NCBI GenBank assembly: GCA_027604185.1
Contig: JADGKB010000163.1
Coordinates: forward strand, 1 to 23,021
DNA: 23,021 bases
DNA from: Boothiomyces macroporosus
Taxonomy: Eukaryota; Chytridiomycota; Chytridiomycetes; Rhizophydiales; Terramycetaceae
Direction: 5' to 3'
Made by a program: the position numbers and the translations under genes. Under the pieces are notes generated by a model. It did not search any database, was not told the DNA's origin, and was given only the letters and a program-made list of their open reading frames with translations. Each line of letters starts with the position of its first letter. The stretch's first letter is position 1. Shown piece by piece: positions 1-23,021 of the stretch.

Positions 1-409
1 GAAACTCAAGCAACTGAAGTTGTCGAAGAAGTACAAGCAACTGAAGTAGTTGAAGATGCTCAAGTCACTGAAGTAGTTGAAGAAACTCAAGTCACTGAAG
101 TTGTAGAAGAAACTCAAGCTACTGAAGTTGTAGAAGAAACTCAAGTCACTGAAGTTGTTGAAGAAGCTCAAGTCACTGAAGTAGTCGAAGATGCTCAAGT
201 CACTGAAGTTGTTGAAGAAGCTCAAGTCACTGAAGTTGTAGAAGAAACTCAAGCAACTGAAGTTGTCGAAGAAGTACAAGCAACTGAAGTAGTTGAAGAT
301 GCTCAAGTCACTGAAGTAGTGGAAGTACAAGCAACTGAAGTTGTTGAAGATGCTCAAGCAACTGAAGTAGAAGAAACCCAAGCAACTGAAGTAGTCGAAG
401 AAGCTCAAG
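1..409 (+). repeat. 27-bp in-frame tandem repeat (9-residue units)
   Basis: About 15 units of 27 bp encode TEVVEE-x-Q-x; two units have lost one codon (8 residues). Repeats may continue upstream of the window. A 77-bp stretch at 1-77 recurs without mismatch at 244-320, exactly 243 bp (nine units) away, which indicates a recent higher-order duplication. Confidence 0.95.
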
Positions 410-1169: not shown

Positions 1170-3834
1170 ATGGACTATCAGATTGCACTTGACTTGATTA
1201 AAACAAAAGGCTACAAAATGTATTTAAATGAAGAGGAATCAAGGGTATTTGAATATATTACAAAGACACAAAAGATTTTCAAATCGTTCATTGAAAATCC
1301 AAAATCCAAAAAGGAACTTGTCGGTAGCTGGTTATTAATCTAGGTAATTACCGCATTAATTCTAGGTATTTGGAACTAATGTAGATTTACTGGATCAGGA
1401 AAAGGAGAATACACTGTTGAATATTTCACTGAAAATTCGACTAATGCTCACTGAACTCTCAATGAACCCAGTGCAAGCAATCAATACATTGGAGGAACAA
1501 GACTTGTCTAGTTTAATCCCGTTTGATGATCAGTATTACAGCTTGGAACAGGATGAGAGCTTGATCCCTAAAATTTCAATCTTCAAACAAGTGAAACCAA
1601 AAGTAGTAGAAAAAGTAGAGAAACCTGTAGTTATACCGCCAGGAATGAAGTATTTATTGGAAATGGTGGATAATGTTAAAGCTGTACAAAAAATTGTTGT
1701 AGATTCCATTCCTTCGAAATCTAAATGGGCAAATGATGACCGTGTGGGACAGGAGCAATTATATGAAGCATTTGAAAAAGTATTGACCGGATTAAAGAAT
1801 TACACTGTACTATCAATTAATTTAGGAACACTCTTTGCCGTTTCTTAGACCAGTCCAAAAGAGAGAAGCTCCAAATTACTTTGATATTATAAAAAACCCG
1901 ATGGATTTAACCACCATGACTAAAAAGCTTAAAAATTTGCAGTACAACAACAAGGATGACTTTGCCGCGGACCTAGAGTTGATTTGGAGTAACTGTCTAA
2001 CTTACAACACAATGCCTGTAAAATTCTTTAATTCAGGAAAGTATATACAGACAGCATGCGTTTGCAATGAGAAGAAAGACGCAGGAGCTTTTAAAAAAGA
2101 TTCCAGAGATTTCTATTCAATCCAACAAAGAGTCTGATGATGAAAGTGGTAACCATTGCTTGATATAGACGATGAGGGAAAGTCAAAAGTGTCTGAAAAG
2201 GAAGATGTTGAGATGGAAAGTGTCAAGGAGGAAAAGGAGGAAGAAGAAAAGGAAGAGAAAGAGGACGAAGAAGAGCACGAAGATGGAATTAACAACCAGT
2301 TACAGCAAGAATACATGTATGACTCTTGCATTATTACAAAAAAATGGAAGCAGATTACCAGTAATGATCGAGCAATGGTTCTGGTAATCAACGTTAATAC
2401 AGACTCAAAAGCAGCTGAACAAACAGTTAAAGTTTGGTGATTGGCCAGCATTGATTAGAACAGAGCAAGACATGGCAAAATATGCCGATAATCAACAGAA
2501 ATTTTATGAAAAAGCTAAAATCAGGCAGAATATCCTGCAAGGTATGGAAAATGAAATTCCAGAACTGTCGTATTTCTTACCAGAAACTTACAATGTTGTT
2601 TCTTCGTTCCCAGAATCAAACACTCAAGCACCCAAATTTAATTTTGATGTCCAAGACTTTTTATCTCCAGATACATCGGAAAGGTAGACTTATTTAACAA
2701 AGCAAAATACCTCATCCACCTTTACCAACTTTGTCTGAATATTCAATCTTTAATATTGATACCAACAGCAAACTGAATATGGCAATGATGAAAAATATTC
2801 AAGAAATGAAAAATATTAAAGATATATACTCCAAGGTGCTGGCAAAGCAGAATATAAACGAACCACAGATGAATATACCTAAACCTGAACCTTATACGCC
2901 GCTATGGGATGAAAAAGATTTACCCCCTCCTGTGTTGAATCTCAATTCGTCTTTTCAGCTAATTCAAAAGTCTTGTGGATATATTTTGTCTCATATAGGA
3001 TTCGACTCTGCCACGGAACAAGCACTATCCACATTTTCAGACATAATGATGCAATTACTCTACACTGCTGGAAGAACAATGAGCGCATTTATTGATAAAT
3101 ATGGAACGATAATGCAATCTGAAGTAAGTTACCTTAACCCAGGAAATCTTGTTCCATGTGCTTTTAGAATTAGGAGTAAAAGATCCAATCGATCTCCAAA
3201 CGTACATAAACCATGATGTAATCAGATATGGCAACAAATTACATGAGCTATCTAGAAAGCTTGATTATGCTTGGAACGAATTCGGCCAAGTCCAGCAAGA
3301 CGATATAGAATTTGAAGACCAGCAAGAGAATTTCTACAGTGGCAATTTCTTGGAAGGTGCGGGAATAGATTTCTTGAATCTTAAAGATATCGGTTTAGAT
3401 TTCCACATTCCGATGGAGCTATGGAACAGAAAGGCAGATAAACCATTAACTGCACGAGTTAAACGCAACTTGATAAAGTATTTGCGACTAATAATAGTAC
3501 TGGTCCTGTCGCTGCTTCTGATTTGGAAACTGAAATTAAAGTGCCTGCATTTGAAAAGTGGGAACCTGTGGATCCCGGTAAACAAATCAAGCTGCTGGCA
3601 GACTTTTACTCTAAACTTACTCCAGAAACAATGATTGAAGACGAGTTCAAACCAAAAACAAAGGAACAAAAGATGATGGTCAAGTATGCTCAAACTGGTG
3701 TTCGGAAAAAGACTAATGTTTTACAACCGAAAAAGAAAGAACCAAAGACTACAGTTAAAAAGATTGTCAAGAAAGAGAAAAAGTTGAAGGAAAAGAAGAG
3801 AAAGAAGGGGGAAATGTCGCCAATGTTGGAATAA
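1170..3834 (+). CDS. SPT7: SPT7-like SAGA subunit (bromodomain + histone fold)
   Basis: Nine exons: 1170-1323, 1385-1806, 1826-2017, 2037-2148, 2169-2383, 2403-2683, 2703-3123, 3143-3477, 3498-3834; total 822 residues. SPT7 is a scaffold subunit of the SAGA histone acetyltransferase coactivator in the nucleus. The bromodomain spans about 165-276, with [17 protein letters not shown] at 204-220 and the acetyl-lysine pocket signature NCLTYN ending at N253. The segment just before it ([23 protein letters not shown]) is the SPT7-type arrangement. Glu/Lys-rich linker at about 294-333. Histone fold at about 540-625 ([15 protein letters not shown], then [12 protein letters not shown]), the heterodimerisation part. 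Lys-rich tail at the C-terminus. Seven introns are single (19-20 nt); the first intron site is a 61-nt array of three units. Every junction restores frame and bromodomain or histone-fold continuity. The PH gene converges on it with 33 bp between stops. Confidence 0.93.
1324..1384 (+). other. Three tandem introns with zero-length exons (SPT7)
   Basis: The gap between SPT7 exons 1 and 2 divides exactly into three intron-like units: 1324-1343 (20 nt), 1344-1365 (22 nt) and 1366-1384 (19 nt). Each begins GTA and ends TAG, and each has its own TTAAT or CTAAT branch-like motif 4-6 nt before the AG. Junctions between units read TAG|GTA. Removing all 61 nt joins GTC-G to AT-TTA in frame (V-D-L-L). 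Removing only one or two units shifts frame or leaves a stop. It could be excised stepwise or as one 61-nt intron. Confidence 0.8.
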
Positions 3835-6513: not shown

Positions 6514-9500
6514 ATGATTATAGAGCTGATACTCTTTGGATCTTCGCTTCAGTATTCCAGTATCGATCAGAGGTTTTTTTATCAAAGTGAAGATCTAATA
6601 GGCAACAATTACTATGTTGGCCAGCCAGTAAATTAGCCTAATAGCAGATCAATCTTGTGTACACATCGCCAAACAACTACGTTACATGGTCTGATTCTTC
6701 TTCTAGCTGCAGCTTTAATTCTAACGGTGTAATAACTCAAGGAGCCTCGAATGGAACCTCTGTCACGATAACTTGTTCTGATGCTGCAGGAACAACAATT
6801 CAAGCACAGCAGGATGGGAATTCGCAGGAGGCAACAGTGTTCAATATCTCAGTACAATCGCCGCAATATCAATGGTATTACACATGGTCGTGTGGAAATG
6901 GAAATGTCCAGGTTCTATCTGCCTCATCAATTTGCAAAATGGCTATATGGGCTGTAAACCCAATCAATTTGAGCTCTGGAGAATTATCAGGAGCCGCTAC
7001 AACACCACTGCAAGTAATGTCAATCTAATTTAGTATTCTAAACAAATAACCCAGTCTCTGCAATTCATGGGCGAATATCCCCAACTGCATTTTGACAGCG
7101 ACTATATCAACATGACAGTCCCGTCATATAATGCAACTTCATTGTAAATCAATTACTAATACCTAGGTGCTGGGAGAGTCTAGCCACGGTTAATGGAAAC
7201 AATTATTTAGGGTCGACCACCATCAAAATCACTGGACAAGGTGTCTCACTGTTAGGAAACTACATTCAAGATCGTAAAGTAATTGTTTATATTCAAAAGT
7301 ACTATCCATCCACTCTTGGGTTCACGCCAAATACAACATACACGGCAGGAAGCAGTTCTTTCTTTAGAATCACTCATGATCCTTGCTCACCGGAGATTGC
7401 AATTGTTGTAGGATCGATGATTGGAGTGGAAAATATGTTACTTACAAACACATTGTTCAAGGAAACCCCGCAATATCTAAACCCAGGACAATCAATAGGA
7501 ACAATAACAGCGGTAGTAATGAATAACATGGGGATCGCAATCCTGGGGTCGAGTCAGTATGTTTTTGTCTTTGTAAACGGAACAAGAATTACGACAACTC
7601 TACCAGATACAACTGTAAAGAAAATGGCTACTACCAGTATGTGTAACAGAAGATTTTGGACCTTGGATAACGTAATAGTTCTATGGAGCTCTGCAACTTC
7701 AACTGGACCTTTGGAAAACATCTATATTTCCAAAGACTATGGGGCTACATTTAGTAAGGTTTCAATTGGTGTTGGTGGTGCAAACGGATATATTGCAGAC
7801 GTATACATCCAAGATATGTATTCACAGATCATTGTCTTGATAAAAGATTCATCCGGAAATGATATCATTAAATCATATGATTTGAATTTCAACTTTACAA
7901 TCAAGTATAGCAGTAGTGGGAGCCAATCGATAGTTAATGGAGGTATAAAAGGGTCGACACCGAAAATGGTGGGATTCAATACCGGAGAACTTTATTTTAC
8001 CGGGGATAATTTAAATTATAGTCCTGATAGTGGACAAACTCTTTTTTCGCTGACGATGCAATCAAGGTATTACGTGAATGCAAGTCTAGGAACCTTTGAG
8101 TATATTAAAGATATCGCAATCAGTAAAAATAATCGATATATAGCAGTACGGACTTCCATCAATCGAGTATTTATCGGACAGCTAGGCTCAACTATATTCT
8201 ACGATATAGTAGCTGGTATATTGCCTTCCGCAGGTACCTGCAAAGATTAAAATAGACGTTGGATTATTGTTTGACTCTAATAGCAATTTAAATGTGATTT
8301 CGTCTCCAAATGTGGTGAGGATGCTATCAATTCAAAACGAAATACAATCACTTGGAATTACCTGTCCATATTCACAGATATCTTTAAATGCACAACCATA
8401 TTACGAACTAGACATGGAAGACGTGCTTAATATTTCAGGGACAATAGTTTCACCAAAGAATTCTCCAGTTTCTTTTTCGTTCATGAATACCAATCCAAAT
8501 GTTGCAACGACAAATACTACCAAATCAGATATTAGTGACTTTAGTGATATTGTATACACCCAGGGTATTCAAGTATCTGCTTCTGCAGCCAATATTAGCA
8601 GACAGGGCGTCTCTGTTCTTGTGTTTGACCCATCATCATCAAATTTGGCATGCAGTGTTCAACGAACTGTACCTTTATAACTAATTTCAGAGTACTAATT
8701 TACTAGTTGGCTGTCCAAAGAATAGAAAATTGGTCTATTACAATCCAACCAGTTACGTGAATCCTCCATCCCCGACCCCAAGATATCATATTGATAGATA
8801 TTCCTCAGAGTATCACTCTTCATTTTCAGTAATCACAAACAACTCTACTGATGGCTTAATTCTAACTGATGGACCATGTGCAGATCAAACTTACACTATA
8901 CCTGCTGGCACATGGACCGACCTTAGTACTGGAAATCTAGGCACAAGTGACAAAACTGTATCCACAAATTGCAGTGTGCATGGTTCAATCACACAGAGAT
9001 ACTATGGTGCATATTTCCGACCACAGTTCGCCATTTACGAAAATGGCATATTTGTACGCAAAGTGACAGTCGATGTTGGAATCCAAGAAATCTATGGAAG
9101 AAATACATACCAGTTCAACATGACTGGATATGACGCACGGTGTACATTTAACCCATTAGATTTTAAATCAGGCTCAAACTTGGTGCTTTAGAATTAATTT
9201 AGACTTTCTGGAATTGTTACGGTGGATATTCGATTTCAGGGACTGGTGAGTTATGGAAAGAATATCAAGTGATGAATTCAACAAATTACAATTCAATTAC
9301 TTGGACGGGTAATCTCGATGGGATTTATATATTCAAAGCGGCGGTATTAGATCCAAATTATTCCTACTGCACACTTGAAACAGAATTCGCTATTCAAGTG
9401 ATTGGCTCCCCCACAAACACCGTAACACAGGTGTCAGTTTTGCTTCTAGTGAATGCATCCGCGATATCTATACTAGTTATAAGCTATCTCATTTATTCTA

Positions 9501-10082: not shown

Positions 10083-11159
10083 TTAACGTAGAGTGTCTTC
10101 ATCTACTTTAAAGGATTGCTCCGCTTTGGATGAAGACCAGTGTATAGTTTCCAATTCGATTGAAGCAGCAGTCTTGTTATTGTCTACAAACGTATACCGT
10201 TGAGACAGGTACAAGGCAGCAATGTGGTACATTCCTTTGGCAGCGACAGTCATATCGAAAAGGTATAATGGAATGTAATAGATTGGCAGACCAGACGGAT
10301 TTACCATATTTCCATTGTCATCATATATTCCCAGTTTGTGGGTTTGGTGGTAGAGCTGAAAGCTGTAGTTGTAGATCATTGGTATCCAACAGAACAGATT
10401 AGCTATGGTAATAGCTTGAATCATATTTAGCATAATTATTTTTGACCCAGTCATATCTGATTGACTCTTGAGCCCTCTCAATGTGAAAGTATAAAACGTA
10501 CACAGCAAGAGGACAATAACTGACGCAAGACTGATGTACATGGAATTGTACATTGTTCGCCTAATATTAATATGAAATACCATATGTTAATTAAGTGTAT
10601 CCGCTGTGTTTGGTCGTCAGTATGCAGTTTAATATTTTCAATTATCGCATAAGCTACTTCTGAAATGAGCCATATGAATACAGATAGCCCTATACAAGCA
10701 CTGATTAGCTTTTTCCACTTTATATTGCTAATTGTGCTATTCAAATGGACAACTGTAAACGCAATGTATGAAGCCGACAGACCCAGTAATCCAGACGCTA
10801 CTATGAAAGGGTCGGATAAATTCCCTATTTGCAATTTGCTGATAATCTCTGCATTACTTTGGTCGGCATTATTAACACAATTTATGTAGTCAATTGTGCC
10901 GCCTATAGCTGTAGAGAGTATGGTTAACACTGCTGTAATCAAATCGCATATTCCTATGGCCAGTATTAGATATCCAAACCCAGAATTAGCTTTGAAATAG
11001 TTTTTTCTAGTCTAATTGTTAAATTGGATTTACTGTAATAATTAATATCGATCCGGCTAGTCCAAGAAGGGTGAATATGTAAGTGACTAGTTCGACATAG
11101 TCATACTGATCTCCCAATCCATTCTCTATGAATGCTATTTTGAAGCATGTGCTGTTCAT
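10083..11159 (-). CDS. Seven-helix receptor-like protein A
   Basis: Three exons: 11159-11034, 11011-10581, 10560-10083; introns 22 and 20 nt; 344 residues. Seven hydrophobic helices are visible. The start MNSTC was chosen because it aligns with the N-termini of the five paralogues; an in-frame upstream ATG would add 30 unmatched residues. Family marks: N-terminal Cys, KNYFKANSGFGYLILAIGICDL leading into TM2 with its conserved Asp, a Cys in loop 1, IKWKK before TM4, LNMIQAITIANLFCWIPMI in TM6 (CWxP), and AAKGMYHIAALYLS in TM7. The tail has ETIHWSSSK. The CWxP motif and TM2 Asp recall class A GPCRs, but DRY and NPxxY are absent. Ligand and G-protein coupling are unknown. It has both family introns. 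Confidence 0.85.
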
Positions 11160-11272
11160 GGCAAAAGTTTTTGTGTTCGTCGACCTTGAAGGTCTCTGCA
11201 AGTTCCCTGAAGAATCCGGGTCGACATAAAACAGTAGAATGTTGATCACAAACAGAAAAAATAATAAAGTTT

Positions 11273-11289
11273 ACAAGGTTTTAAGGTTT
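11273..11289 (-). promoter_or_regulatory. AAACCTTAA-type element upstream of receptor A
   Basis: On the minus strand this reads AAACCTTAAAACCTTGT, 114-130 bp before the start of receptor A. An almost identical 16-mer (one A fewer) lies in the uS9/AKTIP promoter at 21938-21953. Two near-copies in upstream regions suggest a transcription-factor site, but this is only a sequence match. Confidence 0.3.
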
Positions 11290-11449
11290 ACTTTTTTTCC
11301 CTCTTTTTAATTTGTGAATTAAATTGGATATCAGTGTTGGTTACAATTCGGTTTACAGTTCCAAGCAAAAAAAGTTTAAGCGCAATTCTCCCACAAAATT
11401 AACCCGGAGCCCATTAACATTGACCCTTAAAATGGATCATCAATAAAAT

Positions 11450-12467
11450 TTATAAAGTGGTGTGGCCCATCGTATCATGAGTGGTTTGCCATTCAATCGT
11501 GTCCAGTTTGATGGACGAGGTCGATACTTGGGTATAGATTTTCTCTGAAAAATAAAGAGCCAGGAGGTGGTAAAGCCCTTTGGAATACACTGTGCAGTTC
11601 CACAAATATAATGAAGAGTAATAAACGAAATCGGTTTCGTAAAACCCAGACGGATTCAGCATTTCATTTGTTTGACAGATATAGAGATAATTTCCAATAA
11701 TGTATGGGATCCAGGAAACTAGATTTGAAATTGTGATGGCTTGAATCATGTTCAGCATCAGCTTCTTTGCTGGCGCGTATTCCATTTTGACAATCTGAAG
11801 TTTGTAAAATGTGCACGTATAGAATATTATAAACAGCACTACTAATATCAAGGCATAGATTCCATAAGTATAGTAGTAAATATACTGCCAAGTGCCAAGC
11901 GGTTGAATGAAATTATCTGGATCTTGAATTTGTTGTTTGTAGCTGCTATAGTAGAATATCGCACACACACCATACACCGATATGGATACTCCAATACAAG
12001 CCAAGCCAACGAATTTCCATTTGATATCAGCAGATATCCCATTCAAGCAAACAACTGCGAATGCGATAAATGCTACTGCTATGCCAACGTTTCCAGATGC
12101 CAATAAGAATATATCACTAATATGAATCATATTTCCAGCAACATATTCCATAGTAAGCGTGGTATTGTAAGATGTGTCTAGGTTGATACACAGGCTGTAG
12201 AAAACGGAGCTCTGAACCAAGCTGGCAACCAGAAACGAACATTCAGTTACAAGATCCAACACTGCAAGTAAAAATATCAAATATCCAAATCCAGAATGAC
12301 TCTTGAAATACTTTTCTCTATTCTATGTTAAATATAGATACTTTAATCATGATTATAGAGCCTGTTATTCCCAGGAGAACGAATAGATAATTGACCGCTA
12401 CGCCATAGTCGTATTCGTAGACCGCGGATTGCTTAAAGTAAGAGTTTGTTATACATGAATTGGTCAT
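11450..12467 (-). CDS. Seven-helix receptor-like protein B
   Basis: Two exons, 12467-12342 and 12322-11450, with a 19-nt intron; 332 residues. The intron is in the same position and phase as the first intron of A (after 42 codons, before (T/N)R(K/E)). The second family intron is absent, although the Trp codon that carries it is kept (GTWQYIYY). Family marks: N-terminal Cys, SGFGYLI and VLDLVT in TM2, DIFLLASGNVG in TM3, IKWKF, LMLNMIQAITISNL then SWIP in TM6 (CWxP changed to SWIP), YSKGLYHLLALYFSE in TM7, and tail LDTIEWQTTH ending TTL. 290 bp separate its stop from the start of A. Plasma or flagellar membrane receptor by inference. Confidence 0.85.
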
Positions 12468-12706
12468 TTTAGAAACTTTGAACTGCGCTGACCATCCGGG
12501 GCAGTCCAGGATCCAAGACAGGGTACTAACAAAGACAACTTCAAACCTGTATGATGAAACAATAAAGAAAGTATGCTACTGTACGTACCGCATGTTACTT
12601 GCTGGCATTTCCAATAACAGATTTGAGTCAAGTGTGTGTAGTCGGTTTCATTTCCAAATTAAGGCACCTTGAAAGGCTGTGGTTCAAAAACTTTTTGTAG
12701 AATTAG
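12468..12706. promoter_or_regulatory. Divergent promoter region between receptors B and C
   Basis: 239 bp between two divergent receptor starts. There is no supported gene. Joint control of B and C from here is possible but no operator-like repeat stands out. Confidence 0.4.
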
Positions 12707-13733
12707 ATGAACAGGACTTGCTTTGTACAGGCATTCGTAGAAAATTATACAGGACAAGATGTGCCGTACGATTACGGAACACTGGTTTCTTTTGTATTCA
12801 TTGTACTGGGAATAATTGGTGCTATATTGATTATTGTTACTAGAAAGTGGTATTACAAAGCAGATACAGGATTTGGATTTCTTATTCTTGCTCTGGGGAT
12901 ATGCGATTTGCTCACCTCTGGGACTTGGCTCATATTCAACCTTTACAATAGCATTACCACTTATCAGCAGTGTATAGGTCAACTCACATACACCGATTTT
13001 GAGATGCAAGCGAATTACGAATTGGGATTCTTTAGTGATATATTCTTGTTTAGTTCAGGAAACATCAGCTTAGCCATCTGCTATATAGCATTCGCAGTTG
13101 TTTTCATGAACGCTTCTGCAAGTTCAATCAAATGGAAGAAATTAGTTTCATTCAGTTTTACAATTGCGATTCTGATTTGGATTTTTATGGGGATCACATT
13201 CCACTATGCGTGGGAGTATGTAAATTCACATGATAAAACCAGAGTATTTATAATATGGTAATTCAAACTAATCTAGGCATCAGATATACTATGGCGTTTA
13301 CCTTTCTTATGCTTCTATACTGGTAGTACTGTTTGGTTCTTTTCTGATAAGCTCAATGTTTTATGTACATCAATCTACAAAGCCCAAATGGACAAAATCC
13401 GAATTGCTGCTGCTCAATACCGTCCAAGCGGTGACCTTTTCCAACCTGATATGTTGGATAGCAATGATAGTAGAATACACGAATTTGTACGACAGCTGGG
13501 TGAATCCTTTTTCTCACTTGCAAACAAATCTTTCTGCTCAATTATCAATACTGTACCTCACTAATATCACTGTTTATTCTAAAGGATTCTATCATATAAT
13601 CGCTTTGCTGATATCAGAGCGACTGACCAGAGATTTGAAAAACGGGTCAAGCACGAAAACAAGTGAAAAAGAGCTGGAAGTGATTGAAAGTATCCAGTGG
13701 TCAGCAACTAATGTAGAATCTAATTTATCATAA
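12707..13733 (+). CDS. Seven-helix receptor-like protein C
   Basis: Two exons, 12707-13257 and 13277-13733, with a 19-nt intron; 335 residues. The intron splits a Trp codon (TG|G, phase 2) just before TM5, the same site as in A and D; the TM1-TM2 intron of A and B is absent. Family marks: MNRTCF start, TGFGFLILALGICDLLT in TM2, Cys in YQQC of loop 1, DIFLFSSGNISLA in TM3, IKWKK, LLNTVQAVTFSNLICWIAMI in TM6 (the P of CWxP is replaced by A), YSKGFYHIIALLISERL in TM7, tail ESIQWSATN. C and D are the closest pair by motif wording and are adjacent, so they look like a tandem duplication. Confidence 0.85.
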
Positions 13734-13806
13734 TATAAATACTTTTACTCTGTTACGGGTAATTTACACAAAGGCTTTTTAAGATGGGATTTTTTGTACT
13801 AACCAA

Positions 13807-14827
13807 ATGGAACTAGATTGCTTGGGGGAAGCATTTATTAGACTGGCTTACTTTGAACACAACGACTATGCGCAAATACTGAATTATGTTTGTACCGTAC
13901 TTGGAATCCTTGGTGCAATGTTGATTATAAAAACAAAGCAGTGGTATTTCAAGGCAGATACTGGTTTTGGATACATGATACTTGCATTGGGCTACAGTGA
14001 CATGCTCACTTCTATTTCACATTTAATTTCTTGTTTATTTTGGAGCATCACCGTTTATTACTACTGCAAGATTGGGTTTACTAGGGAGCCACGTTACATA
14101 CTTGAAATACAACAGCAACTGGGATTAATTAGCGATATATTCTTGTTCGCATCTGGTAATATCAGTCTGGCCATCTGCTACATTTCGTTTTCTGTTGTTT
14201 TTATGAATGCTTCCACTGCTCATGTGAAATGGCGCAAAATGGCATTGTACAGCTTTGTAGTATCTCTTTCTTGCTGGGTTTTTATGGCACTCACTTACCA
14301 TGTGGTATTTACTTACACCGAACAACACCATGGACATTCATTCTTTCCATGGTAATTGTTCCTAATCTAGGTTTAAGCTATACAATGGATTCTATCTGGC
14401 TTATGCGTCATTACTGGTAATATTATTTGGAATATTCTTGATTTGCTCACTATCCATTATAACCAAGAGGCACAAATCAAAGTGGACAAATATAGATTTG
14501 CTATTATTGAATACAGTTCAAGCAATAACAATCTCCAATTTATTGTGTTGGACTGCTATGGTAATTTCATACGCGAATGATACGGACAGATGGGCAAACG
14601 AATATTCTCCCCTACAAAATAATGTCATTGCACAATATGTTATCTTGTATGTACAAAATCTATTCATATACCTGAAAGGATTTTACCATGTTATTGCATT
14701 AAAGCTATCCGAAAGGCTGACGAGAGACCTAGTTTCTGGCTCGAATAATTCTAGTGAGAATGGGTTGGAAATATTTGACACTATCCGATGGAACACCACC
14801 TTGGAATCAACAAAATCAGAAGTTTAG
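13807..14827 (+). CDS. Seven-helix receptor-like protein D
   Basis: Two exons, 13807-14351 and 14371-14827, with a 19-nt intron splitting a Trp codon at the same site as in C; 333 residues. It starts 73 bp after C. Family marks: MELDC start, TGFGYMILALGYSDMLT in TM2, Cys in loop 1 (YYYC), DIFLFASGNISLAICYI in TM3, VKWRK, LLNTVQAITISNLLCWTAMV in TM6 (CWTA rather than CWxP), YLKGFYHVIALKLSERL in TM7, tail DTIRWNTTL. It shares the RLTRDL segment after TM7 with C. Receptor role is inferred; no ligand is indicated. Confidence 0.85.
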
Positions 14828-17730: not shown

Positions 17731-18678
17731 TTATAATGTATTGTCCAGATCTAATATTCTTTCTGGCTTGGATAACGTGAAATCCCATTTAATTGTATCT
17801 TCACCACTCGCGTTTTTGGGCTCTCTTTTCTCTGCGTATAATTCTGCCAAGTATAGGGCACAGATATGATAGAAGCCTTTGGCGTATACCGTGGCAGATG
17901 AGATATAGAGTATAACTGAAAAAAAACTTTCGTTATACGTCGCTATAGATTGTATTAAAAGTGCTGTAAAAGTGTAATTTAGTATTAGTGGTAGCCAGCA
18001 TAGCAAATTTGATATTGTTAGAGCTTGCAGCATTGTCAGCATCAACAATTTTGAACTATTTGCGGATTTCCGTGCATTCAACCCTCTATGCGTGGCAATA
18101 TAAAAGTACAGATATAATACTACCAGAATTATTGCATAGATATCGTACACTGTGTAATAAATAGAAATGTCAGTTCCAGCGTTCTTAAATGCTAGATCAA
18201 AGTACACGGCATAAGCGAGATACAAGCCCAGAGAGATTATTGTAGATATCAGCAGTAGTTTTTTCCAGTTTAGAATATGTTTGATACCATTCCTGCAAGT
18301 GATTGAATAAGCAATAAAAGATACCGCAACACCCAAGTTACCCGAAGCGAATAAAAAAATATCGCTTATTCTACTTCCTTGTGAAGAGTAATAGTATTCG
18401 TTTTCCGAAACGGTGCTATTTTGGATGCAGTGCTGGTAATTCATAATTCCGTTAGTGAATGCGCCGCACAACCATATAAATGCAGTAAGCAAGTCTAATA
18501 TTCCTATAGAGAGAATCAAGTATCCGAATTCAGAGTCTTTACTGAAATATCTGTTTTTTGTGATGATTATCATTAGTGAACCGAATACTCCAAATGCTGT
18601 CAAAATATATCCCACGATGGTAGAGTAGTCGCTGTAATTAACGAGAATGTTGTCTTGAAAACATTCGGCTGTATTCAT
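17731..18678 (-). CDS. Seven-helix receptor-like protein E (intronless)
   Basis: Single exon, 315 residues, starting MNTAEC. Seven hydrophobic helices. Family marks: N-terminal Cys, SEFGYLILSIGILDLLT in TM2, Cys in YQHC of loop 1, DIFLFASGNLGVA in TM3, LNWKK before TM4, LLMLTMLQALTISNLLCWLPLI in TM6 (CWxP kept), YAKGFYHICALYLAE in TM7, tail EDTIKWDFT and terminal DNTL. Both family introns are missing; the conserved Trp at the TM5 boundary is also replaced (ISIYYTVYDIY). 114 bp separate its start from the stop of F. Confidence 0.88.
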   Translation of the reverse strand: MNTAECFQDNILVNYSDYSTIVGYILTAFGVFGSLMIIITKNRYFSKDSEFGYLILSIGILDLLTAFIWLCGAFTNGIMNYQHCIQNSTVSENEYYYSSQGSRISDIFLFASGNLGVAVSFIAYSITCRNGIKHILNWKKLLLISTIISLGLYLAYAVYFDLAFKNAGTDISIYYTVYDIYAIILVVLYLYFYIATHRGLNARKSANSSKLLMLTMLQALTISNLLCWLPLILNYTFTALLIQSIATYNESFFSVILYISSATVYAKGFYHICALYLAELYAEKREPKNASGEDTIKWDFTLSKPERILDLDNTL

Positions 18679-18792
18679 TTTTGGTTGAGTTTCTTCAATG
18701 GCCTATTTTGACCATGCTGAGAGGTTCCCTGCTCAACCGCAGCAATTGGAACTAAACAGAAAAAGTGGCTATGAAAAGGTTTTATTGGGTAT

Positions 18793-19794
18793 TTAGAGAG
18801 TATCGTCGTTTAAGCTAAAGTTGAACTTGAACTCTTTTGTTGGAGTCCATTGAATGGTGTCAACTTCTTCCTTGACGGTGGTTTCAGCATTTCTTTGACA
18901 TAGCCGCTCACAGATATATAGTGATATCAGGTGATATAATCCTTTGCAAGAGGCTGTAGCATTGTATACATAGAGAATAGCATAATAGACCGGATCGCTT
19001 TCGCTATAGTCAGACATGTAACCAGCAGCTGTAGTAGCACAGAAAACGATCATTGGGATCCAACAAATCATGTTGGAGATTGTAATTGCTTGAATCATAT
19101 TCAACATTAGCGTCTTTGAAGAATTTAGCGGAGAAGACTTTTGATTTGACAGGCCGATTGTTGTCAACACATAGAATAATATGAAAAGCGCAACTACTAT
19201 GGAAGCGATGATTGAAATTACAAGGTTGTAGAATATGTTCCATTGAGCTCGTAACAAATTAATTCCGGGTTGATCAGATTTGGATCGCATGCTGAAATTA
19301 ACAGTGTACACGATAGTAATGACAATCCAATACACTAGCGGAATAGCAAAGCAAGCTGCAATTAACCTTTTCCATTGGATATTGTTGGCGATAGCATTGA
19401 GGTATAGTACAGAAATAGCAATGTATGAAACTGCCAATCCCATGAATGCAGATGCTAATAGAAACACATCATTGATATGATAAGCATTCGCTATCCAGTA
19501 CTTTGCAAGCTGTGTTGAAGTGGTATTTGTAATGCAGTTATGATACTGTACAGAGTTGTCAACAAAGTTTGCAGCCAACCACGTAAAGGAAACAAAAAAG
19601 TCGCAAACACCCATAGCCAGTATCAAGTATCCGAAACCAGAGTTTGTCTTGAAATATTTGTTTCTTGTGATAATAATAATTGATGAAGCAAGAATTCCAA
19701 AAATAGTAAATACATAGCAAACTAATTGACCGTAATCGTAAGAAACGCCGCTATTGTACTCTATGAAATTATCAACAAAGCACTCGCTGTTGGA
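18793..19794 (-). CDS. Seven-helix receptor-like protein F (intronless)
   Basis: Single exon, 333 residues from the ATG at 19794 (MSNSEC). The frame is open from an ATG 63 bp upstream, but MSNSECF aligns with the other paralogue N-termini, so I prefer it. Family marks: SGFGYLILAMGVCDFFVS in TM2, Cys in YHNC, DVFLLASAFMGLAVSYIA in TM3, IQWKR, LMLNMIQAITISNMICWIPMI in TM6, CKGLYHLISLYICERL in TM7, tail VDTIQWTPT and terminal DDTL. Several sequons lie in loop 1. It is closest to A in TM6 wording. Both family introns are absent although the Trp codon is kept (AQWNIFYN). Confidence 0.88.
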   Translation of the reverse strand, partial: SNSECFVDNFIEYNSGVSYDYGQLVCYVFTIFGILASSIIIITRNKYFKTNSGFGYLILAMGVCDFFVSFTWLAANFVDNSVQYHNCITNTTSTQLAKYWIANAYHINDVFLLASAFMGLAVSYIAISVLYLNAIANNIQWKRLIAACFAIPLVYWIVITIVYTVNFSMRSKSDQPGINLLRAQWNIFYNLVISIIASIVVALFILFYVLTTIGLSNQKSSPLNSSKTLMLNMIQAITISNMICWIPMIVFCATTAAGYMSDYSESDPVYYAILYVYNATASCKGLYHLISLYICERLCQRNAETTVKEEVDTIQWTPTKEFKFNFSLNDDTL

Positions 19795-20338
19795 CATCAA
19801 GTTAATTGATTTTGGAGTGCAGTTCTCGTTTTTCCATTTATACAGTTGATGAAACACGCACCTTGAAATTCTGGGAATTGGGCGAAACTAAAAAAAAGCA
19901 CACTGGAACTTGAATCAGGACTATGGTCTGTGTAACTAGCTGTTTGCAGATAAGCGGTCAAAGGCTAGCATCAGCAGCTCAACTTGAATGCTGGTTTAGC
20001 CCTTCAAGTTTTTTGTATAGCCTCCTTGGAAAATATAATTTGGGTCTCTGTTCGGTGACTCTTGATACGTAGGCCATCAGTGATCAATTCTGCCTATAAT
20101 TCAACCATGGTATAATTAATGCCAGTATTCACGCATTCACAGTTGAATAGTGGCACCACTTCTGTTTGGCTACATGTACATTTTGCTTTCATTGAAAAGC
20201 CCATGGGGATTATATGCCTTGGCTAATTGGTTGATTATTGAAAGCGTTCGCAAGCAAGTCTTTACATTATCAATAATCTTGCTTTTGGTTGCACCACTTT
20301 GGAGAATTTGTTGAGGATTTTTTTCCAAAACGGATTTA
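19795..20338. promoter_or_regulatory. Divergent intergenic region, 544 bp
   Basis: The largest gap in the window, between the starts of receptor F (-) and the HAD phosphatase (+). I see no supported gene, no tRNA with recognisable arms and no repeat array. It is less AT-rich than other gaps. The phosphatase promoter is presumably in the AT- and T-tract-rich last 100 bp. Confidence 0.4.
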
Positions 20339-22024: not shown

Positions 22025-22926
22025 ATGGAGTGGGACCATTCAAAGAGAGATTCTGGAGTGTCGATATTGAACCCCGCAATGGGTGCATTGCCCTATAGGA
22101 TGAATTTATTGCCAGACCCATCACTAGTGCAAATCGACGGACTGATATACTCTGAACAATGTAATTAAAACTAAAGCAGGTTTGTTGGTTGAATATGCAA
22201 TGATGAGAGACTACTGTCCAGACGGAATTTATGTTTTACCACTAATGGATTATCTGTACAAGTGGAATGGAGTAATGTTTGTCCAAGGTAATTATCGTTG
22301 ACATAGACGGGCCATTCAAAGGGGGTTTGTTTAGGTATATTGTGGTTAATTCTTAGGTAGATACAGTATTAATTATAGGTATGTATTTTTAATGGTAGGT
22401 TTACTATCGAGTTCAGTGACATGTATCCCAGTATAATACCAACCGTAAGATTTCAGACGAACGTATTTCATCCAATGATCGACTCTAATACCGGACAACT
22501 GGATACACTTGCAGGATTTCCCCAATGGAAATCATCTTCTCTAATAATTGACATTCTAAATTACATTGTAACAATATTGCAAATGCCAAAATGGATAAGC
22601 GGATATTTGGTAGCTGCTCCAGTGTTCACTCCAAATAGAAAGCAATCGAGGAATAACGAAGCAATGAATGTATATCTCTGCGACCAAGAGTTGTTTTCCG
22701 AAAAAACTAGAGAATCTGCAGAGAGCTCCAACTTGTATATTTATGATGATCCTGACTCAGAGATCAAGTTTCAGCCGTTCGACTTGGATTTGCATAGTAA
22801 ATGCCTGGAAAAAATTCTTGATGAGAGAGATGTAATGATTATTAACAAAAGATTGCAGAGTGTCTGCCAGAGATAGAGATTGAAGAACCTCCAGTTAGAA
22901 AGAGGTTTTCATTTTTTTGGAAATAG
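22025..22926 (+). CDS. AKTIP: AKTIP/FTS-like inactive E2 (UEV) protein
   Basis: Five exons: 22025-22160, 22180-22287, 22307-22334, 22399-22831 and 22852-22926; 259 residues. The E2 fold runs from about residue 45 (LLVEYAMMRDYCPDGIYVLP, YKWNGVMFVQDGPFKGGLF, RFTIEFSDMYPS) to HPMID at 115-119. The stretch where an active E2 has its catalytic Cys reads GQLDT here, so it is a UEV variant without transfer activity. Order and wording match AKTIP/FTS, a subunit of the FTS-Hook-FHIP complex that links cargo to dynein. Exon 3 is 28 nt. The third intron site is a 64-nt array of three intron units. The last 20-nt intron (22832-22851) is needed to reach the basic-aromatic C-terminus KRFSFFWK; reading through it instead would stop at 22876. 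Confidence 0.85.
22335..22398 (+). other. Three tandem introns with zero-length exons (AKTIP-like)
   Basis: Between exons 3 and 4 lie three units: 22335-22356 (22 nt), 22357-22378 (22 nt) and 22379-22398 (20 nt). Each starts GTA, ends TAG and has a TTAAT branch-like motif 5-6 nt before the AG. Unit junctions read TAG|GTA. Removing all 64 nt joins TTT-AG to G-TTT and restores the conserved E2 strand (GGLFRFTIEF). The units differ in sequence, so they are not recent copies of each other. Confidence 0.8.
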
Positions 22927-23021
22927 CATAATTACTTGATACAATTTATCACATAATTACTAATACAATTTATCACATAATTACTAATACAATTTATCAC
23001 ATAATTACTAATACAATTTAT
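22927..23021 (+). repeat. 24-bp tandem repeat, running off the window
   Basis: It begins at the base after the AKTIP-like stop: one 25-bp copy (22927-22951), two 24-bp copies (22952-22975, 22976-22999) and 22 bases of a fourth. The unit is AT-rich, contains ACTAAT in the later copies, and starts CATAATTACT. The later copies match one another exactly. The downstream boundary is not seen. Confidence 0.95.

What the first reader, a model, noticed from the sequence alone, without database searches (positions are those of the whole stretch)
22335..22398. Second, independent triple tandem intron (AKTIP-like gene)
The same architecture recurs in an unrelated gene 21 kb away: units of 22, 22 and 20 nt with the same TAG|GTA junctions and an internal branch-like motif each. 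Two arrays of exactly three, with all other sites single, argue against coincidence and for a process that stacks introns.
Basis: partly seen in the sequence, partly recalled or inferred. Interest (0 to 1): 0.85.

Follow-up and report, generated by a model that had tools for sequence, protein, structure and literature searches.

The report
Stacked tiny introns in a chytrid
A chytrid fungus has introns only about 20 letters long, and at some places in its genes it stacks two to nine of them end to end with no coding sequence between, which suggests that its introns can lengthen only by whole units.

Summary
The array at 22335-22398 is real: three abutting units (22, 22, 20 nt), TAG|GTA at both joints, in an AKTIP/FTS-like UBC gene. 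Only removal of all three keeps the frame (7 of 7 other choices break it), restoring a conserved UBC core. The genome is taken to be Boothiomyces macroporosus (Chytridiomycota): identical EF-1A on a contig of the same length. In 223 kb, 299 of 301 predicted single introns are 19-23 nt. Genome-wide the joined motif occurs 120 times at intron spacing against 34 at a shifted spacing; both units carry a branch motif at 26 of 84 such loci against 0 of 23 controls. "Exactly three" is wrong: arrays run from 2 to 9 units; the longest (179 nt) splits MGM101 between residues adjacent in its solved homologue. Three loci show recent whole-unit duplication; other pairs as a group show no kinship. Best reading: a size-limited spliceosome removes each unit separately, and introns grow in whole units. 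Separate removal is inferred; no RNA data were available. Nine literature searches listed no such report.

The parts
22335..22356 (+). array unit 1, 22 nt, GTATATTGTGGTTAATTCTTAG
   Evidence: read directly; intron score at the 6th percentile of 301 single introns
22357..22378 (+). array unit 2, 22 nt, GTAGATACAGTATTAATTATAG
   Evidence: read directly; 56th percentile
22379..22398 (+). array unit 3, 20 nt, GTATGTATTTTTAATGGTAG
   Evidence: read directly; 40th percentile; only removal of all three units keeps the frame
22025..22926 (+). AKTIP/FTS-like UBC-domain gene holding the array; ends uncertain (start 22025 or 22079; stop at 22876 in the hand model, 22926 in the gene finder's)
   Evidence: Pfam UQ_con E=1.7e-18; best PDB match AKT-interacting protein 8qat_D E=6.5e-19; gene models
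22161..22179 (+). single intron, 19 nt, same gene
   Evidence: gene model
22288..22306 (+). single intron, 19 nt, same gene, 28 nt upstream of the array
   Evidence: gene model
1324..1343 (+). sister array unit 1, 20 nt
   Evidence: 74th percentile
1344..1365 (+). sister array unit 2, 22 nt
   Evidence: 95th percentile
1366..1384 (+). sister array unit 3, 19 nt
   Evidence: 73rd percentile; forbidding this array costs the gene model 16.8 nats
1170..3834 (+). gene with bromodomain and Bromo_TP domain (Spt7-like, name recalled) holding the sister array
   Evidence: Pfam Bromodomain 3.6e-22, Bromo_TP 1.4e-9

Best explanation
Each array is a run of complete minimal spliceosomal introns (about 20 nt, each with its own 5' splice site, 3' splice site and, in many, a recognisable branch motif) that abut with zero-length exons. 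In this fungus (Boothiomyces macroporosus, inferred) nearly all predicted introns are 19-23 nt, so the spliceosome probably defines introns by a narrow size window. An intron can then lengthen only by whole units. Tandem duplication of an intron automatically makes the AG|GT joint (GT..AG becomes GT..AGGT..AG); duplications of other lengths would give an intron too long to splice. Units are removed one by one, in any order, and every order gives the same mRNA, so extra units are nearly neutral. Shown: anatomy, narrow intron size, frame and homology across arrays, genome-wide excess, duplication at three loci. Inferred: unit-by-unit removal, the size limit, and duplication as the general origin.
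For: Singles: 299 of 301 are 19-23 nt. Units of well-scoring pairs have nearly the same length profile (the pattern limited them to 18-23). Joined motif 120 vs 34 at shifted spacing; AGGTA pairs 278 vs 133. yTRAy branch motif at the right distance in first/second/both units at 37/40/26 of 84 array loci vs 1/0/0 of 23 spacing controls. Frame: 14 of 16 arrays are disrupted by every partial retention, the other two by 28 of 31 and 14 of 15; the nine-unit array by 511 of 511. Homology runs without a gap across the 179-nt nine-unit array: GGWAL|VPRG in MGM101, PDB 9yi6_A E=5.6e-55, and the model of Boothiomyces sp. JEL0838 has exactly GGWALVPRG there. Duplication: 7 of 48 neighbour pairs exceed the 99% null (0.5 expected), all at three loci; TRF finds 5.6 copies of a 20-nt unit in MGM101. 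One U6 and two U2 genes over cut-off.
Against: No RNA evidence: the same mRNA would result if the array were cut out in one step. Units of the five- and seven-unit arrays are mostly weak (percentiles 0-0.07 for four of five, 0.02-0.18 for five of seven). A hard size limit is not proven: planted joint-free introns of roughly 32-63 nt were recovered with support (delta > 2) in only 33, 32 and 27 of 100 trials, and with a generous prior 8 of 25 long calls pass delta > 2. My gene finder puts no extra penalty on chaining units, which favours arrays; 3 of 100 planted joint-free 42-nt introns were called as doubles. Several array calls have low delta. As a group, neighbour units outside the two most repetitive loci show no sequence kinship. 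The tool's reversed-pattern control gave more hits than the real pattern in all five motif searches (e.g. 234 vs 120; 251 vs 75); I judge it unfair because it spells ATG/GAT, common in coding DNA, while TAG is depleted there. U1 scores just under its cut-off (68.8 vs 69.5).
Confidence: 0.75

Rival explanations
1. The 64-nt stretch is one ordinary intron spliced from its first GT to its last AG; the internal joints are relics or unused.
For: The mRNA would be identical; typical fungal introns are 50-100 nt (recalled); some units in the longest arrays score poorly; a few candidate long introns remain.
Against: 299 of 301 single introns are 19-23 nt; periods of TAGGTA pairs cluster at 19-23 nt; units keep branch motifs that the spacing controls lack; few random 64-mers tile this way (118 of 200,000).
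Confidence: 0.17
2. Origin by partition (not exclusive with the best explanation's splicing step): longer ancestral introns survived a shift to a ~20-nt size limit only where internal AG|GT joints evolved, so the arrays are old long introns cut into legal pieces.
For: As a group, 41 neighbour pairs are unrelated in sequence (p=0.36); total array lengths (about 38-179 nt) fall in the range of ordinary fungal introns (range recalled); arrays sit towards the 5' end (median 0.20 of the CDS vs 0.48 for singles, p=5e-4).
Against: Clear recent unit duplication at three loci. Intron sequence this short saturates quickly, so lack of similarity does not exclude duplication (inference).
Confidence: 0.35
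3. The joints are dual-specific splice sites and units are optional micro-exons, as in human polyubiquitin UBC.
For: Every joint has the AG|GT core of such sites (Duan et al. 2024, PMC10809524; abstract, passages and one section read). A relative's gene model keeps 12 residues at the MGM101 site (P0122).
Against: Keeping any subset of units breaks the frame or adds a stop in 14 of 16 arrays and in nearly all subsets of the other two.
Confidence: 0.04
4. Chance alignment of AT-rich GTA..TAG strings.
For: Some genome-wide pattern hits are chance: about 34 of 120 by the spacing control, and only 48 of 95 pairs have both units scoring 5 or more.
Against: The three genome-wide spacing tests (Poisson p < 1e-24) and the frame and homology evidence.
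Confidence: 0.01

Closest known systems
Recursive splicing / ratchet points (Drosophila, human)
   Same: Abutting AG|GT sites, apparent zero-nucleotide exons, stepwise removal of one intervening sequence (PMC8605326, abstract start and passages seen).
   Different: Known cases lie in very long introns and need a cryptic exon at the site; here the whole array is about 38-179 nt and each step would be a complete ~20-nt intron.
Spliceosomal twin introns (stwintrons) of fungi
   Same: Fungal complex introns made of more than one U2 intron and removed by consecutive splicing reactions (PMC12403724, abstract start and passages seen).
   Different: Stwintrons are nested: one intron splits a splice element of the other and must leave first. 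Here units are side by side and removable in any order.
Dual-specific splice site arrays (polyubiquitin UBC)
   Same: Tandem AG|GT sites in a repeat array; repeat expansion tied to intron gain (PMC10809524, abstract, passages and one section seen).
   Different: There the repeats are coding monomers that may be kept or removed; here keeping units breaks the frame.
Ultrashort introns of mikrocytids, chlorarachniophyte nucleomorphs and heterotrich ciliates
   Same: Narrow size classes: 16-17, 18-21 and 15-16 nt (PMC10245619, passages seen).
   Different: Those are other lineages, and no tandem arrays are described in the passages seen.
Intron gain by DNA repeat expansion in Cryptococcus
   Same: New introns by duplication of existing intron sequence within a gene (PMC2395259, passages seen).
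   Different: Gain of near-identical introns in a repetitive region of one gene; the passages seen do not say that the introns abut.

Membership tests
Canonical U2-type GT-AG introns (each unit) | GT...AG ends with a branch motif at a fixed short distance from the 3' end | tested here: met
   GT and AG ends hold by construction of the units. Branch-like yTRAy at 5-8 nt from the end in 37 of 84 first and 40 of 84 second units, 1 and 0 of 23 in controls; in singles 220 of 301 at that distance, 230 anywhere.
Canonical U2-type GT-AG introns (each unit) | Removal restores a conserved reading frame | tested here: met
   UBC and MGM101 homologues align without a gap at the array site, Hat1 with a one-residue gap next to it; frame tests. 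The Cyc8-like array site is not covered by the PDB matches listed.
Canonical U2-type GT-AG introns (each unit) | Observed splicing in RNA | not testable with these tools
   No RNA reads available.
Recursive splicing (ratchet points) | Juxtaposed AG|GT | tested here: met
   Holds at every joint of the arrays read, by construction of the array definition.
Recursive splicing (ratchet points) | Location in long introns, with a cryptic exon downstream of the site | tested here: not met
   Arrays total about 38-179 nt and the next unit follows at once.
Stwintrons | One intron interrupts a splice element of another | tested here: not met
   Units abut; none is needed to complete another's donor, branch or acceptor in the arrays read.
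Dual-specific splice sites | The same AG|GT used as donor and as acceptor in RNA | not testable with these tools
   Sequence permits it; no RNA data.
Tandem-duplication intron gain | Neighbouring units descend from one copy | tested here: inconclusive
   Met at three loci; no group signal in the 41 pairs left after setting aside C1:351 and C8:114.

The most novel reading that the evidence does not exclude
This fungus has quantised introns: its spliceosome accepts only a window of about 19-23 nt, so intervening sequence can grow only by whole units, giving 'intron minisatellites' of up to nine or more introns that are removed one by one in any order. Such arrays would be a distinct gene architecture and a direct view of intron multiplication.
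Probability: 0.5. Interest if true: 0.87.

Novelty: new variant of a known kind. Interest (0 to 1): 0.78.

Why it matters
If true, it gives a natural test of how a spliceosome measures intron size, shows zero-length exons stacked in a compact genome, and offers living intermediates of intron gain by duplication. It also suggests that public gene models of these chytrids can be wrong at array sites: the UBC query found no protein at E <= 0.001 (140 candidates of comparable length), and of the three closest MGM101 models, two are distorted at or around the array.

Tried and rejected
Rejected ideas: mikrocytid or other Rhizaria (mikrocytid introns are 16-17 nt; ascetosporean genomes looked at in passages; EF-1A then showed a chytrid). 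An 18S barcode pattern found nothing. The flat-length gene finder called many 'long introns'; most vanished or became weak once a learned length model and chaining were allowed. The gene finder mis-called the MGM101 boundaries and took the seven-unit array as five units; both were corrected by hand from reading frame and homology. The 40-nt call at 8216-8255 is more likely a 22-nt single intron. The tool's reversed-pattern control was judged unfair and replaced by shifted spacing. A further spacing control did not complete. Passages of PMC7138796, PMC9505925, PMC13391722 and PMC8469720 described nothing like these arrays.

Dropped rows: I used 95 of the 100 pairs listed (left out: three on contig C100 that repeat C49, one repeat on C1, one overlapping alternative on C13); 20 of the 120 hits were not listed by the tool. 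In one search I used one pair per locus (84), and 23 of the 29 control pairs whose letters one search printed (of 34 hits): four identical, one overlapping and one overlapping a real array were left out.

Full report
What was checked. The window is contig C163 of an unnamed 15.2-Mb eukaryotic genome. The second array at 1324-1384 is 20+22+19 nt. In each gene, of the eight ways to remove none, some or all units, only removal of all three keeps the frame open. The spliced protein of the finding's gene is a UBC-domain protein (Pfam UQ_con 1.7e-18) whose best solved relative is AKT-interacting protein (8qat_D, 6.5e-19); the alignment has no gap at the array site.

Whose genome it is. The EF-1A protein of locus L047 (contig C16, 181,885 bases) is 100% identical to one of Boothiomyces macroporosus whose record lists a longest contig of 181,885 bases. 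EF-1A of Boothiomyces sp. JEL0838 is also given as 100% identical, but on a 164,512-base contig, so the contig length decides. I take the genome to be B. macroporosus (Chytridiomycota, Rhizophydiales, Terramycetaceae). The name is an inference. One U6 and two U2 genes are over their cut-offs, and a U1 match lies just below (68.8 against 69.5).

Intron size. I wrote a gene finder (codon model plus intron model, standard code) and ran it on the window and twenty 10-kb pieces, one from each of contigs C1-C20 (223 kb). With chaining allowed, and no penalty on chaining beyond each unit's own score, it gave 301 single introns, 2 triples (both in the window; delta 16.8 and 3.6), 2 doubles (23+22 nt in L044, delta 5.0; one weak, delta 0.26) and 6 longer introns, all with delta 1.05 or less. 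Of the 301 singles, 299 are 19-23 nt. Consensus: AAG|GTAAT ... yTAAy ... TAG, the branch-like A usually 6-7 nt from the end. Planted controls: arrays made of real introns were recovered with support in 99 and 98 of 100 trials, but joint-free introns lengthened by 12, 22 or 43 nt in only 33, 32 and 27 of 100, and 3 of 100 of the middle class were miscalled as doubles. With a generous prior, 8 of 25 long calls pass delta 2. So long joint-free introns look rare, but they are not excluded.

Arrays genome-wide. TAGGTA...TAGGTA pairs with a 12-42-nt period number 75; 45 have a period of 19-23 nt, where 5.8 would be expected from the other periods. Five of the 45 come from one repetitive array. GTA..TAGGTA..TAG with units of 18-23 nt occurs 120 times, against 34 for units of 30-35 nt. 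AGGTA pairs: 278 at unit size against 133 at a shifted spacing. The search tool's own control, the pattern read backwards, gave more hits than the pattern in every one of these searches (251 for 75, 234 for 120, 212 for 34, 485 for 278, 500 for 133); it spells ATG and GAT, which coding DNA favours, and is high at the shifted spacings too, so I rely on shifted spacing. A branch motif at the right distance, which the search pattern did not ask for, is found in both units at 26 of 84 loci and at 0 of 23 control loci. Of 14 distinct sites with a 19-23-nt period among loci L003-L031, 10 are called as arrays in a same-strand gene (4 of these 10 with delta below 2); of 8 sites with other periods, 1 is (L025) (my reading).

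How long arrays get. MGM101 (L003 1463-1641, contig C1) holds nine units (21, 20x6, 19, 19 nt; 179 nt) between GGWAL and VPRG. The solved MGM101 9yi6_A aligns there without a gap (E=5.6e-55). The protein of Boothiomyces sp. JEL0838 reads GGWALVPRG (P0121), that of JEL0866 has 12 extra residues exactly there (P0122), and the Terramyces model lacks the stretch on both sides of the array (P0123). A WD40 gene (L016, minus strand) holds seven units (149 nt). A TPR gene (L008; Cyc8/Ssn6-like, name recalled; its PDB matches are TPR proteins in general and the alignments listed do not reach the array site) holds five (110 nt). A gene with a BSD domain and a sub-threshold TFIIH p62 match (L011) holds four. 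Another gene in L016 holds three (two identical) and four, a HOOK-domain gene (L024) three and two, fibrillarin (L023) two and two, Hat1 (L029) two. A four-unit run is also seen at C90:51643-51724 (gene context not fetched). 'Exactly three' is therefore wrong.

Constraint. Any partial retention breaks the frame or brings a stop in 14 of 16 arrays tested, and in 28 of 31 and 14 of 15 subsets in the other two (the 28 of 31 case is part of the seven-unit array); in 511 of 511 subsets of the nine-unit array and 120 of 127 of the seven-unit array. Units are therefore unlikely to be optional coding exons. Units of the five- and seven-unit arrays mostly score low as introns, which speaks against each being an efficient intron.

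Origin. Among 48 neighbour pairs whose units both score as introns, 7 are more alike than 99% of pairs from different arrays (0.5 expected), all at three loci: MGM101 (C1:351642-351741), C8:114397-114453 and C92:40613. The tandem-repeat finder sees 5.6 copies of a 20-nt unit at 94% in MGM101. The 41 pairs left after setting aside C1:351 and C8:114 (the C92 pair still among them) show no excess as a group (p=0.36). So duplication of whole units happens, but for most arrays the origin (old duplication, partition of longer introns, or serial insertion) is open. Arrays lie nearer the 5' end than singles (17 arrays, median 0.20 of the CDS, against 258 singles, 0.48, p=5e-4); most of these arrays were found by pattern, and some genes are cut by locus ends, so this is suggestive only.

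Mechanism. A perfect tandem duplication of an intron makes GT..AGGT..AG, a second complete intron with a zero-length exon. Whatever pairing is used, from any upstream GT to any later AG until all is gone, the mRNA is the same; that makes extra units nearly neutral. In a fungus whose introns are nearly all 19-23 nt, a duplication of another length would give an intron outside the size class. This predicts growth by whole units, as seen. Separate removal of units is inferred; no RNA was available.

Known relatives. Recursive splicing has abutting AG|GT sites in long introns (PMC8605326, passages). Stwintrons are nested (PMC12403724, passages). Polyubiquitin uses tandem dual-specific sites around coding monomers (PMC10809524, abstract, passages and one section). 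Repeat expansion can create introns in Cryptococcus (PMC2395259, passages). Introns of 15-21 nt are known in mikrocytids, nucleomorphs and heterotrich ciliates (PMC10245619, passages). I found no report of ~20-nt introns in a chytrid or of tandem intron arrays in the searches, of which I saw the listings (titles and abstract starts, at most 30 papers each) and passages of some papers. The library lacks most subscription papers, so this is weak evidence of novelty.

Noticed in passing
window 10083-14827 and 17731-19797: Six neighbouring genes on both strands with similar sequences (by eye, about 320-335 aa where complete, hydrophobic, with alike openings): a cluster of paralogous, probably multi-pass membrane proteins.
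   Followed up: no
window 22927-23021: The contig ends in a 24-nt tandem repeat (CATAATTACTAATACAATTTATCA, 3.9 copies, 97%), probably where assembly stopped.
   Followed up: no
window 1-409: Coding tandem repeat of 27/81 nt (EVVEETQ-type repeats) at the contig start.
   Followed up: no
L016, L023, L024: Arrays seem clustered: neighbouring genes or the same gene carry two or more arrays each. Not tested against a control.
   Followed up: partly
window 22025-22926 and L024 1464-3025: Array-bearing genes include homologues of AKTIP/FTS and of HOOK, partners in one animal complex (recalled); may be chance.
   Followed up: no
window 22025-22926: The spliced UBC protein found no relative at E <= 0.001 in the large protein set (140 candidates of comparable length), though it matches solved AKTIP; public models may miss or break this gene.
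   Followed up: partly
L016 2164-2240: The exon after the 3x19-nt array starts GTAATAGGCAG, much like the units (GTAATAGCAG...), as if exon sequence had taken part in the duplication.
   Followed up: no
G000:C49/C100, C1/C173, and pairs within C1, C3, C18, C69, C90: Identical arrays or motifs on two contigs or at two places of one contig suggest duplicated or haplotype segments in the assembly.
   Followed up: no
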